From a virus, in the IMG/VR virus record IMGVR_UViG_3300032304_001710, positions 1 through 58,261 of that record: DNA of 58,261 bases; one strand, 5' to 3'. A program made the position numbers and the translations under genes. Positions 306-49,294 of the stretch are shown piece by piece; position 1 is the stretch's first letter; each line of letters begins with the position of its first letter. The notes under the pieces are model-generated. The model was not told the DNA's origin. It saw nothing but the letters and a program-made list of their open reading frames with translations, and ran no database searches.

Positions 306-1358
306 GTGACTAACCAAATAGTTCCAGACTCAGATATTCATTTAGTACGTGGTCCTATGGGTTGGGGTGACGACAACAACACTCCAATCGATAAACGTCA
401 CGATCACGAATCCAGGCTATTCGACAAACTAGCCTCAGATATGCCAGTAGCATATCGAGCTAGAGAATCTGTTGAAATCAACAACCCAATGATGGATCGT
501 CTTCGTAAACTTCATGACTCGAAAAACTACGGTTCTGATTCTTATGATCTAACATTGATCGATGAAATGATCTACGGCAAACGTCTTCAATGGCTACCAC
601 AGAAGACAGGTTCTTGTATTGTATCTAATACGTTTAGACCTTGGACACGTAGAGCATTGTTCGAAGTAGTTGTAAAAGGTGACGCTGAAGAACTACTAGG
701 TCGTAACGAGTTCAGTACTAACAACTTATCTTTCTACGCACCTTTCAGCTACGGTTGTGGTCGGCGTAGAGGAAACCTCAAAGGTAACACTGAACGGAAT
801 GACGGTTCTTGGTGTGAAATTCAGTATGAATCACTTATTAAAGATGGGGTTATTCTTTGCAACAATGGTAAACTCTTAGAGATTCTAAGTAAGCTTAATG
901 CTGTTGGAGATCAAGATTTTCCAGAACCCCAAAACAACAGTGTGTATCGAAGATTTCAAAACTGGGAATTTCTAGATACTCTTTTACCGTTTACGGATTT
1001 CAGGTTACTAGAGTCTCCAAGAGTAACCGATATCGATTCCCATCTTGCATTACATAAACAATTCAAACCAATGTCAGTTTGTTCTGGCATTGCTATTCAT
1101 AAGATCGGAACACATAAAGATGGTTTCCCGATCCACGCACAAAACCCAAGAGACTCATGGGGGCATTGCATGAGCTTCCAAGGATACTTTACTGCATCAG
1201 ATAGTAAAGTCTATGTAAAACTTTCAAACGAGTCTTGGGGGCCTAACCTCATTTACAACATACCAGTTGAAGAAGTATCAAGATGGTACTCTCGAAAAGC
1301 TGTAACTGTTCAAGCAGTAGGTGAAATTGATCTACCTGATTCTGTACCACTTTTATAA
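306..1358 (+). CDS. Papain-like cysteine peptidase, candidate endolysin
   Basis: A 350-residue protein from GTG. Three C1/papain-type catalytic motifs occur in the right order: GSC around Cys104, WGHCMSFQGY with His287 (compare the GHAV..VGY strand) and SNESWG with Asn308 (compare NSWG). There is no signal peptide. It lies 3' of the terminase and a secreted protein, and 5' of small membrane proteins, so it probably cleaves host envelope peptides at lysis. Cleavage of virion proteins is the alternative. The fold is read from motifs, and the lysis role is inferred from position. Confidence 0.5.
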   Translation: MTNQIVPDSDIHLVRGPMGWGDDNNTPIDKRHDHESRLFDKLASDMPVAYRARESVEINNPMMDRLRKLHDSKNYGSDSYDLTLIDEMIYGKRLQWLPQKTGSCIVSNTFRPWTRRALFEVVVKGDAEELLGRNEFSTNNLSFYAPFSYGCGRRRGNLKGNTERNDGSWCEIQYESLIKDGVILCNNGKLLEILSKLNAVGDQDFPEPQNNSVYRRFQNWEFLDTLLPFTDFRLLESPRVTDIDSHLALHKQFKPMSVCSGIAIHKIGTHKDGFPIHAQNPRDSWGHCMSFQGYFTASDSKVYVKLSNESWGPNLIYNIPVEEVSRWYSRKAVTVQAVGEIDLPDSVPLL

Positions 1359-1374: not shown

Positions 1375-1788
1375 ATGATTTACTTGATTTCCCAAACTGA
1401 AGTAGCAAACCAAGCTCACAGATTTCTTATCGAAGACAAATACACTATTACTGGTGTGCTACTCGTTGTAGTTGTTGTTATCGTATTAGGAATCTGGAAA
1501 CTTAGTTCTTGGTTTGGAAAAGAAATAGTTATTCCATTTAGAGACAAGGGACTAAAAGTAATGGAATCTCACTTAGATAAAGTAGACGGAACTTTGGAAA
1601 CTATGGGGACTACAATGGTAGACATATCCAAGTCTCTAACCCAAATGGCCGCAACTCAAATAGTGAACACCCAAAGGCTTGACACAATCGAAGAAAAAGT
1701 AGATAACCTTGATAGCAAGATTGGAAACTTAGACAGTCACATGAAGCTTCAAGACAACAAAATCGACTCTATTTCTAGGAGCCACTAA
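1375..1788 (+). CDS. Small membrane protein with coiled coil, holin or spanin candidate
   Basis: A 137-residue protein. A hydrophobic segment at about residues 27-45 (VLLVVVVVIVLGIWKL) is followed by a long charged coiled-coil-like tail in which D, K, L and N repeat. One N-terminal membrane helix plus a helical tail next to a lysin candidate fits a holin or inner-membrane spanin. The family was not identified, and a structural protein is possible. Confidence 0.55.
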   Translation: MIYLISQTEVANQAHRFLIEDKYTITGVLLVVVVVIVLGIWKLSSWFGKEIVIPFRDKGLKVMESHLDKVDGTLETMGTTMVDISKSLTQMAATQIVNTQRLDTIEEKVDNLDSKIGNLDSHMKLQDNKIDSISRSH

Positions 1789-1790
1789 CA

Positions 1791-2114
1791 ATGACATACG
1801 AATCACTTACTAACGATGCAGATGACACACTCCTTCAAGACGTTCCAACAAGTCTAAAAGTACGTGATCAAAGACTCATTATCAAGTTAGTTAATAAGTA
1901 CTCTAGTCGAGTTACTGGAAAGACAAAAACTGAACGTGAAGCTCAAATAGCTGAACTTCGTAGCGAAATCGAAAATGATAAAGAGCTATATAAAATCGAT
2001 GTAATGACAATACTAGCTATTGTCAATTTAATTCTTACTCTAATCAAATTCTTCAAAGATCGTAAAGCTAATCGTTTACGTGCTCGTCGTGGTCGAATTG
2101 AACTACATCGTTAA
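1791..2114 (+). CDS. Small protein with C-terminal membrane helix
   Basis: A 107-residue protein starting 2 nt after the previous stop. It has an acidic and helical N-terminal half, a hydrophobic helix at about residues 66-87 (MTILAIVNLILTLIKFF), then a strongly basic tail rich in Arg. A late membrane helix with a cytoplasmic basic end suits a lysis-cassette accessory such as an antiholin. The function is not known. Confidence 0.55.
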   Translation: MTYESLTNDADDTLLQDVPTSLKVRDQRLIIKLVNKYSSRVTGKTKTEREAQIAELRSEIENDKELYKIDVMTILAIVNLILTLIKFFKDRKANRLRARRGRIELHR

Positions 2115-2167
2115 TCAAGGAAATACAGTTTTACAAAACGTACTTAAACAACAAGGAGATAGACTCG

Positions 2168-2734
2168 ATGATCGAATGGCTTGTTTTCATCATTGTTTCT
2201 TGGCTGGCTGCTGACTTCATTGCAGGTTTGTTTCATTGGTGGGAAGACACCTACCTGACGCAAAGCGACTCGTTTATAGGGCGTCTGATCGGTGGACCGA
2301 ATCAGCTCCACCATATGGACCAGTACGCTTTTCTCAAGGGTTCGTACTGGAAGCGGAACTACACCACAATCGTTCCAAGCCTTGTTGCAATGCTGATCTG
2401 CTTAGCTTTCGAGCCACTACTAAACGGATGGCTTACAATGCTGTTTTTATCTCAAGCAAATCAAATTCATGCACTCTCGCACAGCAAAGGGAGGAACGGC
2501 TGGTTGGTTGTTTTGATGCAACGTCTGTACATATTTCAAAGCCCAAAACATCATTCTGTTCATCACCGAAACCCGTTTCATGTTAGGTATTGCGTTATGA
2601 CGCCGATCCTAAATCCAGTGCTCGATGCTGTTTCTTTTTGGCGAGTCCTGGAGTTTTTTGTGTTGGCGGTTTTTTGGATTCCACCGAGGTTAAATCATGG
2701 ATTGAAATTTGATATGGTCCCAGAAGATACTTAA
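2168..2734 (+). CDS. CarF/TMEM189-like lipid desaturase
   Basis: A 188-residue membrane protein that I recognise as the Kua/TMEM189/CarF lipid desaturase family (plasmanylethanolamine desaturase, PF10520). The His pattern is conserved: ADFIAGLFHWWED (His23), PNQLHHM (His48, His49), IHALSH (His101, His105) and PKHHSVHH (His128, 129, 132, 133), which would hold a di-iron site. Hydrophobic stretches lie near residues 4-22, 68-95 and 155-172. Known relatives put the vinyl-ether double bond into plasmalogens. In a phage this would be an auxiliary lipid-modifying enzyme. Its base composition and codon choice look less like the neighbours, which suggests acquisition from a host. Confidence 0.75.
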   Translation: MIEWLVFIIVSWLAADFIAGLFHWWEDTYLTQSDSFIGRLIGGPNQLHHMDQYAFLKGSYWKRNYTTIVPSLVAMLICLAFEPLLNGWLTMLFLSQANQIHALSHSKGRNGWLVVLMQRLYIFQSPKHHSVHHRNPFHVRYCVMTPILNPVLDAVSFWRVLEFFVLAVFWIPPRLNHGLKFDMVPEDT

Positions 2735-2738
2735 AATC

Positions 2739-2984
2739 ATGGAATCACATTTGTTGAAATCTGAACAACACGATCCTGAAAATGGTTTTGTAGTTGACTT
2801 TGAAAACACCTTACAGGAAAACAATCAAGTGATTGGAAATCTTGCTTATAGAGTAGCTGTTCCTGGAGTTTTTTTATTATTAGACCTAGTTCCGTGTAAG
2901 CTGGGTTCTGAGCTTATTCCTACTTGCGCTTTTTTAACCGCGACCATTATTGGTCTTGACCCAACAAAAGTAAAACAAAGATGA
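2739..2984 (+). CDS. Small hypothetical membrane protein
   Basis: An 81-residue protein from the ATG 4 nt after the desaturase stop. An upstream TTG would overlap the desaturase. It is acidic at first, then hydrophobic from about residue 38 to 75 (AVPGVFLLLDLVP, then FLTATIIG), so one or two membrane helices are likely. Its stop overlaps the next ATG as ATGA. Function unknown. Confidence 0.6.
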   Translation: MESHLLKSEQHDPENGFVVDFENTLQENNQVIGNLAYRVAVPGVFLLLDLVPCKLGSELIPTCAFLTATIIGLDPTKVKQR

Positions 2985-5119
2985 AGGCAGCATTTGACCA
3001 AGTGTTCAATGAGTCAATGACGCAAACACCAATTGGAGGCCCTTACGATGCTTCTGCTATAAATCGAGGCAAGCATACAGGCTTGTTTAACCTTGGTGCT
3101 GGTGATCTCGACAAATTCATTGGACCAGCACCAATCGGTGTGGGTAATTTGGCTGAAACCTCATTAGCGATGCCTTCACCATTTATCCAACCTGTCAAAA
3201 TATCTAACGATCTGTTTTGGGTGTTTGGTACTGATGGAGGATCAGCAGCAGCTACTCGACGTGTTCAGCTTTGGACCTGGGTTCCTAGCACAAATACTTA
3301 CTCTTTAGTAGGAGCGGTCAATTGCACATTTCCCACAGCGACTGGTCACACTGTACGTGGGTTCCGAGCTATTCTTGAGAACTATAGTGTGGGTACTGTT
3401 GGAGTTTCTGGACTCACCGTGACAGGTCTTGGTTCTGAGTGGAATACTGGTCTTTCAGTTGGGTCCCGTATTGGTTTTGGTTCGACGGACCCTAACGCCA
3501 TTACCACATGGTATCAGATTAGTGCTATCAATTCTGACACTTCTATCACTTTGACAACAAATGCAGGAGTTATCTCAGCGGGTTCTGCATACGTGATTCA
3601 AGATTTGATGCTAATCCAAGCAACCACAAACGCTACTGCAACAAACGGCGGATTGTTCATCACTAAAGGCTTGCAGTTTGCTGATTTTCAAAATCCAGCT
3701 TCTTCCATACCTGCGGCTACTACTGTCGATAAAATTAAAGCAACCTACTGGCTTCGCGATGCAGCAGTCATCACTAATGATGTGATTGGTGGATGTGCTC
3801 TAGGTGATCGAGATTCATGGTCCCAGCAGTATGTCTATTGCACTGAAGGAGCAGCTACTTCCCTGCAAATATATCGATACAACATTCGGACTCCTTTGAC
3901 ACCAACTGCTGGAGCTTTTATATTGACTGGCTCTGATATCGTGGTCACTGGTAGCCAAACAGTAACAGGTAACATATCTCAAGCGAATAATGGCCGCGTA
4001 GCTACTCTGGCTCACGGTCCCGGCAATGGTATTCCTAGCCTTTATCTCTTCACCGCAAGCCGTATTCTGCGTGTGCCGCTTGCTAATGTAATAGCGGGCA
4101 ACGTGATTTTCGTTGCGGATAGTATGTCCGAAGTTGCCCCTGGCGGATCGAACACCAATCTTTTGAATAGTACTTTTACTTCGTTTGACGTAGCAAACTC
4201 CCTCGACAAGCTGGTCATCACGGGTGCTACTTCAACCGGCACGATTTTTGTGACTGACTATTACACGGGCGGGCAGCAAATCGATCGTCGGGCCGGAGCT
4301 GTGGCCTCTCAGGTTCCGTCCGCACAACGTGATACGGATAGTCCTATTTTCGTTCACAATGTCGGCAATGGCACTCCTTTTATTTGGGTGGAAGACGGGT
4401 GGTTGTTCTGGGTCTATTCCCAAGCCACAACCGCCAACGTAAATGCTTTAACCGTTTATCCCCTAGCGGCGGACTCTGAGTTTCAGAATGATGTACCAAA
4501 CCGGATTATTGCACCAAAGATAAGCTTGGGAGACACTCCCGCGAAATTCTATCGGGTGCTAGTAAACGCTATGGAAAATCTGGGCGATCATTCAATGGGA
4601 GTGTCTCCCGATGCTTATCGCATCCAAGTCCGCACTAGTGGAATCAATGATAACTCAGGAGCATGGTTAGATGTCCCTCAATCTGGGGATCTTTCTGGAG
4701 TCAGCACTGCTGCTGAGATTCAATTTGCTTTCTTATTCAGAACAGCGGGAGTAATCATGCTTCCGGCTAGAATCTTAGCATTAGGTTTGATATACGAGAC
4801 CGAGGACTCGCTTCCAAGTCAGTACCGTTGGAACTTTGCGGACTTCAATCAAAGCAATGGGACGTTTGCTTGGGTTCAAGCGAATTTGTTTGGAACATCT
4901 CTGCCAGTACATACTATACAAGTGTATCGTGCAGACACTAATGCTCTTGTTTTGACTCAACAAAGTTCAGGAACAACAAACGGAGTCTTCCAACATTGGG
5001 ATGGAGCCAACTGGGTTGCCGGGCTAGGAACAGACTCCTTAAATCTACGCAGACGATTCGTGCCAAGTGGTTCTTTGCCAAGCGGTGTAGCTCTTTACGC
5101 TAAAATACTGGTGGTCTAA
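2981..5119 (+). CDS. Large virion protein, probable tail fibre or receptor-binding protein
   Basis: A 712-residue protein rich in Ser, Thr, Gly, Asn and Ala, with no signal peptide or catalytic motif. Residues around 137-205 contain a module of the type VSGLTVTGLGSEWNTGLSVG followed by ITTWYQISAINS, which I recognise as a recurrent beta-rich module in phage virion proteins. It overlaps the next gene by one base (ATG inside TAATGA), which implies translational coupling. Which virion part it forms cannot be decided from sequence. Confidence 0.6.
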   Translation: MKAAFDQVFNESMTQTPIGGPYDASAINRGKHTGLFNLGAGDLDKFIGPAPIGVGNLAETSLAMPSPFIQPVKISNDLFWVFGTDGGSAAATRRVQLWTWVPSTNTYSLVGAVNCTFPTATGHTVRGFRAILENYSVGTVGVSGLTVTGLGSEWNTGLSVGSRIGFGSTDPNAITTWYQISAINSDTSITLTTNAGVISAGSAYVIQDLMLIQATTNATATNGGLFITKGLQFADFQNPASSIPAATTVDKIKATYWLRDAAVITNDVIGGCALGDRDSWSQQYVYCTEGAATSLQIYRYNIRTPLTPTAGAFILTGSDIVVTGSQTVTGNISQANNGRVATLAHGPGNGIPSLYLFTASRILRVPLANVIAGNVIFVADSMSEVAPGGSNTNLLNSTFTSFDVANSLDKLVITGATSTGTIFVTDYYTGGQQIDRRAGAVASQVPSAQRDTDSPIFVHNVGNGTPFIWVEDGWLFWVYSQATTANVNALTVYPLAADSEFQNDVPNRIIAPKISLGDTPAKFYRVLVNAMENLGDHSMGVSPDAYRIQVRTSGINDNSGAWLDVPQSGDLSGVSTAAEIQFAFLFRTAGVIMLPARILALGLIYETEDSLPSQYRWNFADFNQSNGTFAWVQANLFGTSLPVHTIQVYRADTNALVLTQQSSGTTNGVFQHWDGANWVAGLGTDSLNLRRRFVPSGSLPSGVALYAKILVV

Positions 5120-5361
5120 TGAATTTACAAGCAGGAGGAAACAGTTCAGTTCTTGTTATCGATCTTGGGACCCCCTCTCCCGTTCAAGACTTTTTAGTCT
5201 TAAATCAGAACGTTCAAATATCAAGTCTAAGTTCTCCATTATTAGGCAGTTATTTCCTTTTATCATCCGATGGTCCAGTATCGATAAGTATCGCTGCTCT
5301 GTTTTTGTTTCAATTCTACTGGCTTCAAAATCAACAATTAACTCTAGGGGATGGGCTATAA
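5119..5361 (+). CDS. Small hypothetical virion-cluster protein
   Basis: An 80-residue protein coupled at both ends by overlapping stop and start codons. It looks like a single beta-rich domain (SVLVIDLGTPSPVQDFLVL, then SSPLLGSYFLLSSDG, then FLFQFYWL). It is probably a small structural partner of the fibre-like proteins on either side. No family recognised. Confidence 0.6.
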   Translation: MNLQAGGNSSVLVIDLGTPSPVQDFLVLNQNVQISSLSSPLLGSYFLLSSDGPVSISIAALFLFQFYWLQNQQLTLGDGL

Positions 5362-7202
5362 TGTACGCCAGAAATAACTCGAACCCTCTTCCAATCCTGC
5401 TCGGAGCTATTGTCAATGCTTCCACAGGAGTCATTCAAACCACAGATGTGTTAGTGAAAGTGTCTAAGGATTCGGGCTCGTTTGTTCCTGGAACGAACTC
5501 TCCTACCATTGAAGAAGGAGAGTGGAGCTACTCCCCTTCAACTGCTGAGACTGATTGTCTCAGCCTAAGGGTCATCCTGTACAAATCAGGGTGTTTTTCT
5601 CGAAGCAAGCAAGTAGTGTTCACTGCATCTTCTTCCTTTGGATATTCTGGCACGGATCAAAGCAAAATAGTAAATGCTTCATCTGCGGTCAATTTGTCTG
5701 GAACTTCTATCAAGTTGGCTGCTGATAATGCTACCCAGTCCAGTGTCAATTCTATCCCCACCAATCCATTACGAGACAACGATGCAAGACTCCTTTTCCT
5801 TGATGCGAGTATCGCAACCAGCACTAGTTCAGTCCTCGGAGCAATCACAGGACTAAACAACCTTTCTGCTAAAGCTAACTTGTTTGGTGCAGCAGTTCTT
5901 GAAGCACCAGAAACCGGATCATCAATCTATGAGTTTACTCTTGTAGTAAATGATGATGAAGGTAAGCTGGTCAATCTGGATACAGCACCGACAATTACAT
6001 CTACGAATTCCTCTGGTACGGATCGTTCAACAAACTTGTCAGCAGTCACCAACCCAAGTGTTGGACGATACAGATTCAATTACATTGTATCATCTACACA
6101 CCCCAGGGAAGGACTACGAATCGAAGCTAGTGGAACAACCAGCACAGAAGCTCGATACGCTATATGGGCAGGAGCAGTAGTTGACTTCGATCAATCAACC
6201 GTACTTGCTCAACTTGTATCAGACTTATCACTCAAACCAACCCTGGTACAAATCGAATCATCCACAATTCTAGCTAAAGAATTAACTGTTGCTAATCGAG
6301 CATCACAAACAAGTGTTAATGCTTTACCAAACACAACTAGAAATCTAGTGATGAACTCGATGCCTGGTGATGGTTGGACTACTGGATCGTTTGGAAATCG
6401 TTGGATTATTAGCAACAGCTCAAACAGAACAATTGGAGTCACAGGTCCTGAATCTGGTCATGTCCATGCTGTTATTCATGGAGCAGAAACAGAAGTGTTT
6501 GTACCAACAACTTTCAAAACATCGGTGTACGATACAATCACGGCTAACTTGTTAGCTACATCCCACACCAGCTACAGCACCCCAGGAACAGTAGGCAAAA
6601 CACTTACCGATACCAATGCCAGCCTATCAACTTTGCTAACTCGAATACCAGCAGCAACAACACAACTGGTAACTGACCTAGCTCTTATGCTAGTTGGTTC
6701 TGGTACAGCACTTGTAAGATGGACTGTAAATGCTCTCAGCTTAGCTCCATCTGGTGGTGGTGGAACTATCATAGCTACAGTAGCCGTACCATCAGTCCTA
6801 CAAAACACAGCATACGCATTAGATGAAATCTTAGTGTATCGAGGAACGTACTGGTCTTTCCAAATTCAAAACCTTGGCGATCTTACTTCGTACAACCAAA
6901 TATGGTTCTGTCTACGTAAACGTCAAAATGATGATGAACCGCAAAGTGACCTACTTATCGCTCTCAATGGTGGTTTGTTAGTAGCTAATAAAAAGACCAA
7001 CTCAATCCCAACATTGGCATCTCTAACTGTAACTGGTAGCAACGTGACTATTCAAGTAGATGAATCCATTACACAGTTCATTGACACAGGAAACAATTAC
7101 AACTATGATCTGAAAGGTAGGAATGTAGCTGGTCACACAATAATGCTACATGAGTCAGATAAGTTTGTAGTCAAACGTGATGTAACTAGGAGAATAGTCT
7201 AA
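5361..7202 (+). CDS. Large virion protein, probable fibre or baseplate component
   Basis: A 613-residue protein. The N-terminal third is beta-rich with Ser/Thr-rich stretches. The middle has repeats of the ATSTSSVLGAITGLNNLSAKANLF kind, suggesting a trimeric shaft. The C-terminus NVAGHTIMLHESDKFVVKRD looks like a capping domain. Stop and start codons overlap with the next gene (TAATGG). Assigned from composition and position between other virion genes. Confidence 0.55.
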   Translation: MYARNNSNPLPILLGAIVNASTGVIQTTDVLVKVSKDSGSFVPGTNSPTIEEGEWSYSPSTAETDCLSLRVILYKSGCFSRSKQVVFTASSSFGYSGTDQSKIVNASSAVNLSGTSIKLAADNATQSSVNSIPTNPLRDNDARLLFLDASIATSTSSVLGAITGLNNLSAKANLFGAAVLEAPETGSSIYEFTLVVNDDEGKLVNLDTAPTITSTNSSGTDRSTNLSAVTNPSVGRYRFNYIVSSTHPREGLRIEASGTTSTEARYAIWAGAVVDFDQSTVLAQLVSDLSLKPTLVQIESSTILAKELTVANRASQTSVNALPNTTRNLVMNSMPGDGWTTGSFGNRWIISNSSNRTIGVTGPESGHVHAVIHGAETEVFVPTTFKTSVYDTITANLLATSHTSYSTPGTVGKTLTDTNASLSTLLTRIPAATTQLVTDLALMLVGSGTALVRWTVNALSLAPSGGGGTIIATVAVPSVLQNTAYALDEILVYRGTYWSFQIQNLGDLTSYNQIWFCLRKRQNDDEPQSDLLIALNGGLLVANKKTNSIPTLASLTVTGSNVTIQVDESITQFIDTGNNYNYDLKGRNVAGHTIMLHESDKFVVKRDVTRRIV

Positions 7203-48130: not shown

Positions 48131-48226
48131 AGTTAATAGTTGGAACTATTCCAACTTGGGAAAGCATCCCCCCTACTTTTTAACGGATGCAAAGCAGATC
48201 GGCAGAGATGCCAAAGGATTACGACC

Positions 48227-49294
48227 ATGACCAAAACGATCACCGCAGCCGCTAAGACTGTTGGAACCTTTCGGGCAGTATGGGCCCTGGTTAAGAACCA
48301 AACCCAAGTTTACATAGGGCAAACGGTCCGAGTAACACTCGGACCCGACGACCTAGCCGCTTGGGTTGACGCAACTGGGATCGACCCCGTAACCATGACC
48401 ATTGACGGCAACCGACCCGAGAACCGCACCAACGCGAGAGACTTGGAACGCAATTGCCCGACCTTCAAGCACTACGACCCCGACCTAGGCAGGGTTGTAA
48501 TATGCGGAGTAGGCAAAGGAAAAACTTGTGCCGGAGATGGCGGCCACAGATCGAGGCATATCGTTCGACTAATCCAGAAAGGAGAATCGGGAATCGTTGA
48601 CGTTCTGTTTAGCGATCGATCGGCCAGTATGGGCGGTTTCGACCAAACCGGAAAACGTCGAGACTCTACAGACGAACTGAGGGTGATGCAGTCTGAAGGC
48701 TGGGAGGACTGGGGGCAATGGCAATCCACCACGGCACAATTGGTTCGACTTCGATCTAAAAACAAATCCGTTAAGGGTGGCGGTAAGGCTGGTGAGACGT
48801 GGAACGGAGTTATCTTGACTCCGCACCAATCCGCGACCCAATGGCAAGATGGAACTTTTGACCCATTGACAGAGATCGGCATGACCCAACACGGAAAGAC
48901 GATGAAGAGTCTATTGCAAATTTTCGAAGCTTGGAAGATTGCCAGCCCAACTTCCAAGGCTTGGGGAAACGATCAATATCGTATTTTCGGAATCATCGTT
49001 ACCGCAGTGTTTGACGTACTCGGAACCAGGGTCGACGACCCCGTAAACCTGGATTCCCTAATCGATGCCCTTGATGAAAACGCCCTGAGCATCGGGAAAA
49101 CCTGGGAAGCTTGGCGGAGCATCGTCCAGCCTAAGGCGGATATCGAACAGGACTACCCAGCATGGTTGGCAATCATTCAAGCAGTTGTTGACGGAAAGAG
49201 GATGCCGACCTTGGAAAAGGATGCACCGATCAAGGTCTCTGGGATCAGTGACTACTACAAATCCAAAGAGAAATCTAACAAAGTAGATAAGTAG
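48227..49294 (+). CDS. GC-rich early-type protein, distant ParB-like candidate
   Basis: A 355-residue protein from the ATG at 48227. Codon use and GC are clearly higher than in the rest of the genome. NRPENRTNARDLERN near 62, GDGGHRSRHIVRLIQKGES near 103 and GGFDQTGKRRDSTDELRVM near 137 recall the DGqHR and D.G.kRt..D.l pattern of ParB-like proteins in phages. The C-terminal half is helical. It has its own promoter and structured leader. Either a recent acquisition or a gene under separate control. The ParB link is tentative. Confidence 0.45.
   Translation: MTKTITAAAKTVGTFRAVWALVKNQTQVYIGQTVRVTLGPDDLAAWVDATGIDPVTMTIDGNRPENRTNARDLERNCPTFKHYDPDLGRVVICGVGKGKTCAGDGGHRSRHIVRLIQKGESGIVDVLFSDRSASMGGFDQTGKRRDSTDELRVMQSEGWEDWGQWQSTTAQLVRLRSKNKSVKGGGKAGETWNGVILTPHQSATQWQDGTFDPLTEIGMTQHGKTMKSLLQIFEAWKIASPTSKAWGNDQYRIFGIIVTAVFDVLGTRVDDPVNLDSLIDALDENALSIGKTWEAWRSIVQPKADIEQDYPAWLAIIQAVVDGKRMPTLEKDAPIKVSGISDYYKSKEKSNKVDK

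What the first reader, a model, noticed from the sequence alone, without database searches (positions are those of the whole stretch)
2168..2734. Phage-encoded CarF/TMEM189-like lipid desaturase
All His clusters expected of plasmanylethanolamine desaturases are present in a 188-residue membrane protein in the lysis/fibre region. A phage enzyme that makes plasmalogen-type vinyl-ether lipids, or a related desaturation, would change host membrane properties or oxidative stress response. Its base usage differs from its neighbours.
Basis: partly seen in the sequence, partly recalled or inferred. Interest (0 to 1): 0.62.

Follow-up and report, generated by a model that had tools for sequence, protein, structure and literature searches.

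The report
Phage-carried membrane lipid desaturase gene
This virus of bacteria carries a small, intact-looking gene for an iron enzyme that probably puts double bonds into its host's membrane lipids; it belongs to the same broad family as the plasmalogen-making enzyme CarF/TMEM189 but lacks two residues important in that enzyme, so it probably makes something else, and it moves between otherwise unrelated phages as a single gene.

Summary
The ORF at 2168-2734 is real. It encodes a 188-residue membrane protein matching Pfam PF10520 (Lipid_desat) at 118.7 bits (cut-off 26.4). All eight histidines essential in PEDS1 and the essential aspartate sit at the same spacings. The narrower CarF/TMEM189 label fails: the PEDS1-specific histidine (mouse H131) is Gly58, the near-essential Phe118 is Asn45, and the CarF equivalog model scores 74 bits against a cut-off of 500.

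It belongs to a well-supported clade of 40 viral sequences, apart from the cellular homologues sampled; at least 122 IMG/VR contigs carry relatives. The gene is under strong purifying selection. Nucleotide similarity to relatives stops sharply at its ribosome-binding site and at the next gene's start codon, in phages that otherwise share little with this one.

In 26 relatives a membrane-anchored thioredoxin-fold protein lies within about 1 kb upstream, and 22 of these keep the CxxC. This recalls plant FAD4, a PF10520 enzyme that needs peroxiredoxin Q. The window lacks this partner.

Best reading: a functional phage di-iron lipid desaturase of an uncharacterised 'Asn-type' branch, more likely acting on phospholipid acyl chains than making plasmalogens. 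I found no earlier report in the held literature. Activity, substrate and host are untested.

The parts
2168..2734 (+). PF10520 lipid desaturase, 188 aa, ATG start; eight His (H23, H48, H49, H101, H105, H129, H132, H133) plus D27; N45 and G58 where PEDS1 has F118 and H131
   Evidence: Pfam 3.7e-34; alignments; residue tally over 68 sequences; AlphaFold2 pLDDT 86.7, pTM 0.82
2152..2701 (+). mobile cassette: ribosome-binding site plus residues 1-178; nucleotide similarity to other phages stops at both edges, the 3' edge at the start codon of the next gene in relatives
   Evidence: blastn 86-88% identity over 2152/2154-2701 only, against five relatives
2153..2159 (+). AAGGAGA ribosome-binding site, inside the cassette
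   Evidence: read directly
2702..2734 (+). last 10 residues and stop, not shared with relatives; low model confidence (pLDDT under 50 for residues 177-188)
1791..2114 (+). 107-aa ORF with one predicted membrane helix; occupies the place where relatives carry the thioredoxin-like gene; no CxPC motif
1375..1788 (+). 137-aa ORF, one membrane helix plus coiled-coil-like tail; holin-like by appearance only
   Evidence: phrog_12015 (function unknown) 4.7e-9
2981..5119 (+). tail-fibre-type protein, also of atypical codon usage
   Evidence: phrog_1591 9.7e-7; z = -9.6
5361..7202 (+). large fibre-region protein; a homologue lies downstream of the desaturase in 13 relatives

Best explanation
The gene encodes a working, minimal membrane di-iron lipid desaturase carried by the phage as an auxiliary metabolic gene. 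The protein sits in the host inner membrane with its catalytic histidines on the cytoplasmic face (inferred from CarF topology). Eight histidines, positioned by D27, hold two irons. With O2 and electrons from a host or phage donor, they remove two hydrogens from a lipid chain close to the head group and leave a double bond (inferred from the family). It belongs to an uncharacterised 'Asn-type' branch of PF10520 (N45 in place of PEDS1 F118, plus N98 next to H101) shared by bacteria and phages. Its substrate is more likely an acyl chain of an intact phospholipid, as for FAD4, than an ether lipid (inferred). Shown: family, intact metal-ligand set, purifying selection, viral clade, single-gene exchange between phages, frequent pairing with a thioredoxin-fold protein in relatives. 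Not shown: activity, substrate, host, expression.
For: PF10520 3.7e-34, 118.7 bits. Eight His plus Asp kept in 40 of 40 viral sequences but for one H129N in L003, and in 26 of 26 cellular ones; N45 in 40 of 40 viral and 24 of 26 cellular. dN/dS about 0.03-0.17 among ten phage copies where computable. Viral clade support 99/99. Cassette edges. Thioredoxin-like gene upstream in 26 relatives. FAD4 requires peroxiredoxin Q (PMC12456178, PMC10058643). Confident model, pLDDT 86.7; closest viral structure is a Harvfovirus lipid desaturase, TM about 0.64.
Against: No solved PF10520 structure was found, and Foldseek against the PDB gives only weak fatty-acid-hydroxylase hits (4zr0/4zr1, TM about 0.35-0.38, E about 2), so hydroxylation rather than desaturation is not excluded. 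The Asn-type branch has no characterised member known to me. The thioredoxin-like partner has an N-terminal anchor whose charge pattern leans weakly towards a periplasmic domain, on the far side from the expected active site; four relatives lost one Cys of its CxxC, and the window lacks the gene.
Confidence: 0.72

Rival explanations
1. A true plasmanylethanolamine desaturase (CarF/TMEM189/PEDS1) that makes vinyl-ether plasmalogens in the infected host.
For: Same Pfam family and the same eight His plus Asp.
Against: Ninth His (H131) is Gly58; F118 (6% residual activity when mutated to Ala, PMC8960569) is Asn; CarF equivalog model 74 of 500 bits; no ether-lipid gene among the window ORFs scanned.
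Confidence: 0.1
2. A lipid hydroxylase or other di-iron oxidase of the fatty acid hydroxylase superfamily rather than a desaturase.
For: Weak secondary match to FA_hydroxylase PF04116, 24.3 bits (cut-off 31); the few related PDB hits are the hydroxylase Scs7p.
Against: PF10520 fits far better (118.7 bits); all characterised PF10520 enzymes known to me are desaturases.
Confidence: 0.12
3. A catalytically dead membrane protein used for lysis or superinfection exclusion.
For: Position between small membrane ORFs and fibre genes; one relative (L003) has an essential-position His changed to Asn.
Against: Every metal ligand is kept across 40 divergent viral sequences with that one exception; dN/dS 0.03-0.17.
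Confidence: 0.05
4. A bacterial gene on a mis-binned or chimeric contig.
For: Atypical base usage.
Against: The gene lies among phage structural genes here and in many separate viral contigs from other samples, and its clade is viral, apart from the cellular homologues sampled.
Confidence: 0.01

Closest known systems
PEDS1 / TMEM189 / CarF plasmanylethanolamine desaturase
   Same: PF10520; eight essential His and the essential Asp at the same spacings
   Different: No ninth His (G58), N45 instead of F118, no TM1 region, 74 of 500 bits to the CarF equivalog model
Plant FAD4 (delta-3-trans palmitate desaturase of phosphatidylglycerol)
   Same: PF10520, no PEDS1-specific His; needs a thiol-redox protein (PRXQ), paralleled by the thioredoxin-like gene next to many viral copies
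   Different: FAD4 keeps F118 (PMC8960569), the phage branch has N; the viral partner is a thioredoxin-fold membrane protein, not a peroxiredoxin; no FAD4 sequence was in my tree
Uncharacterised bacterial PF10520 proteins (Bacteroidota, Chlamydiota, Burkholderiales, Cyanobacteriota MAGs; 32-43% identity)
   Same: Eight His, D27 and, in 24 of 26, N45
   Different: Separate branches from the viral clade
Cyanophage lipid desaturases (Roitman et al. 2018; cited through PMC11480375, paper itself not held)
   Same: Phage-borne desaturase proposed to tune host membranes
   Different: A different desaturase family as far as I recall; not compared here
Erythrobacter phage vB_EliS-L02 UIS25202.1 and huge phage LR756511.1
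   Same: PF10520 in phages, annotated hypothetical or not annotated
   Different: 35-37% and 25-28% identity; fall outside the 40-member viral clade, so look like separate acquisitions; LR756511 keeps both F118 and H131 equivalents

Membership tests
PF10520 Lipid_desat superfamily | Profile score above the curated cut-off | tested here: met
   118.7 bits against 26.4
PF10520 Lipid_desat superfamily | Eight conserved His (mouse 96, 121, 122, 187, 191, 215, 218, 219) and Asp100 | tested here: met
   H23, H48, H49, H101, H105, H129, H132, H133, D27 at matching spacings (PMC8960569)
PEDS1/CarF/TMEM189 | Ninth, PEDS1-specific His (mouse H131, CarF H113) | tested here: not met
   G58; His in 0 of 40 viral-clade sequences
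PEDS1/CarF/TMEM189 | Phe118 stacking on H187 | tested here: not met
   N45, invariant in the viral clade
PEDS1/CarF/TMEM189 | CarF equivalog score above cut-off (NF045946, 500 bits) | tested here: not met
   74 bits
PEDS1/CarF/TMEM189 | Four-helix topology including TM1 | tested here: not met
   Phage residue 1 corresponds to mouse residue 74, after the TM1 region 23-73; profile match begins at CarF model position 60 (PMC8960569)
PEDS1/CarF/TMEM189 | Makes vinyl-ether lipids; complements carF | not testable with these tools
   needs experiment
FAD4 | Phe118 equivalent (conserved in PEDS1 and FAD4) | tested here: not met
   N45
FAD4 | Dependence on a thiol-redox partner | tested here: inconclusive
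   Thioredoxin-fold gene upstream in 26 relatives, absent from the window

The most novel reading that the evidence does not exclude
A phage-specific two-part lipid-oxidation module: an Asn-type PF10520 enzyme with a new substrate or double-bond position, fed or regulated by a membrane-anchored thioredoxin-fold protein, traded as a cassette between unrelated phages to remodel the host envelope during infection.
Probability: 0.3. Interest if true: 0.68.

Novelty: new variant of a known kind. Interest (0 to 1): 0.52.

Why it matters
Phage desaturases are known from cyanophages, but I found no report of the CarF/TMEM189/FAD4 family in phages. PHROGs v4 has no matching family, and the isolated relative in an Erythrobacter phage is annotated hypothetical. 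At least 122 viral contigs carry it. It would add another route by which phages change host membrane lipids. The viral proteins are small natural variants in which the F118 position is changed, useful for asking what sets substrate choice in a family that includes the human plasmalogen enzyme. The cultured Erythrobacter phage offers a tractable test of the wider family.

Tried and rejected
True CarF/PEDS1: rejected on four tested features. FA_hydroxylase: below its cut-off. PDB relatives by sequence: none credible. Host assignment: terminase, polymerase and fibre searches gave only distant or no phage matches and no host; no tRNA and no Rfam hit. Plasmids: no match. Papers on PF10520, plasmalogen or CarF in phages: none found in the held library. 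Thioredoxin-like gene in the window: not found. The capped genome-contig scan found no member of the viral clade in bacterial genomes, so no prophage host. Genuine CarF and FAD4 sequences could not be fetched for the tree, so residue correspondences to them rest on published numbering and gap-free spacing.

Full report
Observation. The window is a 58,261-base IMG/VR virus record classed as linear. An ATG-started ORF of 188 codons occupies 2168-2734 on the + strand, preceded by AAGGAGA 8 bases upstream of the ATG. It matches Pfam PF10520 Lipid_desat with E = 3.7e-34 over nearly the whole profile. The eight histidines that are essential in mouse PEDS1 (96, 121, 122, 187, 191, 215, 218, 219) and Asp100 (PMC8960569) correspond to H23, H48, H49, H101, H105, H129, H132, H133 and D27; the spacing from the first His to the His pair is 25 in both. 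In 200,000 shuffles of the protein none had all nine and the best had five. The gene's GC3 is 0.49 and its synonymous codon usage departs from the other window genes (z = -5.1), though the neighbouring fibre gene departs more (z = -9.6).

Family against subfamily. The claim of a CarF/TMEM189 enzyme does not hold. PMC9131029 and PMC8960569 state that a ninth His (mouse H131, CarF H113) is present in PEDS1 proteins but not in FAD4, plant or alphaproteobacterial homologues, and that the plant and alphaproteobacterial proteins do not replace CarF. At that place, nine residues after H49, the phage has Gly58. Phe118, conserved in both PEDS1 and FAD4 and leaving 6% activity when changed to Ala, is Asn45 here (same distances, 22 after H23 and 3 before H48). 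The NCBIfam CarF equivalog model scores 74 bits with a cut-off of 500. The phage protein begins at the equivalent of mouse residue 74, so the TM1 region (mouse 23-73) is absent. Over 68 aligned sequences the Asn is found in 40 of 40 viral-clade and 24 of 26 cellular proteins, and N98, three residues before H101, shows nearly the same distribution. I call this the Asn-type branch; I know of no characterised member.

Structure. AlphaFold2 with 40 sequences gives mean pLDDT 86.7, pTM 0.82, an all-helical protein. No solved PF10520 structure was found by sequence. Foldseek finds a Harvfovirus lipid desaturase domain protein in BFVD (E 1.6e-5, TM about 0.6) and only weak Scs7p hydroxylase hits in the PDB.

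Distribution and evolution. IMG/VR holds 16 close relatives (60-92% identity) and at least 122 in a profile scan, of which 80 were returned. INPHARED has two more distant ones, both without functional annotation. In a maximum-likelihood tree the 40 sequences (the window's and 39 from IMG/VR) form one clade (99/99) apart from the cellular homologues sampled; the Erythrobacter phage and huge-phage proteins fall elsewhere, which suggests separate acquisitions, although their branches are long. Most cellular rows were found with the same patterns as the viral ones, so sampling is not neutral. In random samples PF10520 is rare in cells: 4 of 397 Pseudomonadota genomes besides the seed and 1 of 246 Bacteroidota over the cut-off besides the seed. 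Pairwise dN/dS among ten phage copies is about 0.03-0.17 where computable; several pairs are near saturation in dS.

Mobility. Blastn of the first 8.5 kb of the window against five relatives gives 86-88% identity over 2152/2154-2701 and almost nothing else. The left edge is the ribosome-binding site. The right edge is the codon where, in relatives such as L003, the start codon of the next gene overlaps the desaturase. The 60-kb phage behind L003 shares only one other of the window genes tested, the fibre-region gene 5361-7202 (54%); the phages behind L010 and L011 share head, portal and terminase genes only at 20-35%. The gene thus moves between phages nearly alone, into the stretch before fibre genes in the window and in many relatives.

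Thioredoxin-like neighbour. Clustering of neighbouring ORFs in about 60 loci shows one family as the most common neighbour, within about 1 kb upstream of the desaturase in 21 loci. A profile search adds L002, L005, L008, L009 and L014, making 26. It has an N-terminal hydrophobic helix, invariant Cys-x-x-Cys and cis-Pro positions in the 16 aligned, Pfam thioredoxin matches for some members (PF13098, best 1.8e-5, six of 16), weak glutaredoxin/thioredoxin hits in the PDB, and a predicted thioredoxin fold for its C-terminal domain (low overall confidence, pLDDT 67) whose PDB matches are nearly all thioredoxins. Four of the 26 (L005, L008, L009, L014) have lost the first Cys. L055/L056/L100, in another part of the viral clade, have a different CAPC protein upstream of the desaturase. 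Plant FAD4 requires the thiol protein PRXQ (PMC12456178, PMC10058643), so a thiol-redox partner is a reasonable guess. Against this, the charge pattern around the anchor favours, weakly, a periplasmic domain, while CarF's histidines are cytoplasmic. The window has no such gene.

Mechanism and limits. I take it as a di-iron lipid desaturase of unknown position specificity acting on host membrane lipids; desaturase rather than hydroxylase rests on family membership. Ether-lipid desaturation is unlikely on the residues above and because no ether-lipid gene was found among the window ORFs scanned, but a host that makes ether lipids could supply substrate. The host is unknown. Expression, iron binding and activity were not tested.

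Noticed in passing
L003 10001-10534: One viral copy has H129 (mouse H215, an essential ligand) changed to Asn while the dispensable neighbouring His is kept.
   Followed up: partly
LR756511.1 54612-55067 (L019 4986-5441): A 595-kb uncultured phage encodes a PF10520 protein with both the Phe118 and His131 equivalents, a better candidate for a CarF-type phage enzyme than the window gene (90.5 bits to the CarF model, still below 500).
   Followed up: partly
OL955261.1 2337-2873 (L018): Cultured Erythrobacter phage vB_EliS-L02 carries an unrecognised PF10520 gene (annotated hypothetical; no desaturase is mentioned in its genome paper PMC9127768).
   Followed up: partly
L055/L056 6927-7856, L100 6926-7849: A different CAPC thioredoxin-like protein (about 309 aa) lies upstream of the desaturase in another part of the viral clade.
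   Followed up: partly
window 48140-49294: 384-aa ORF of strongly atypical codon usage (GC3 0.56, z = -10.2), no Pfam or PHROG match; possibly another recent acquisition.
   Followed up: no
window 306-1358: 350-aa ORF resembling a cysteine-peptidase-type protein by eye, with no Pfam, PHROG or PDB match; relatives L010/L011 have a possibly similar protein in the same place.
   Followed up: partly
L072 8528-9391: Patatin-like (GxSxG) ORF directly downstream of the desaturase by eye; a possible second lipid gene.
   Followed up: no
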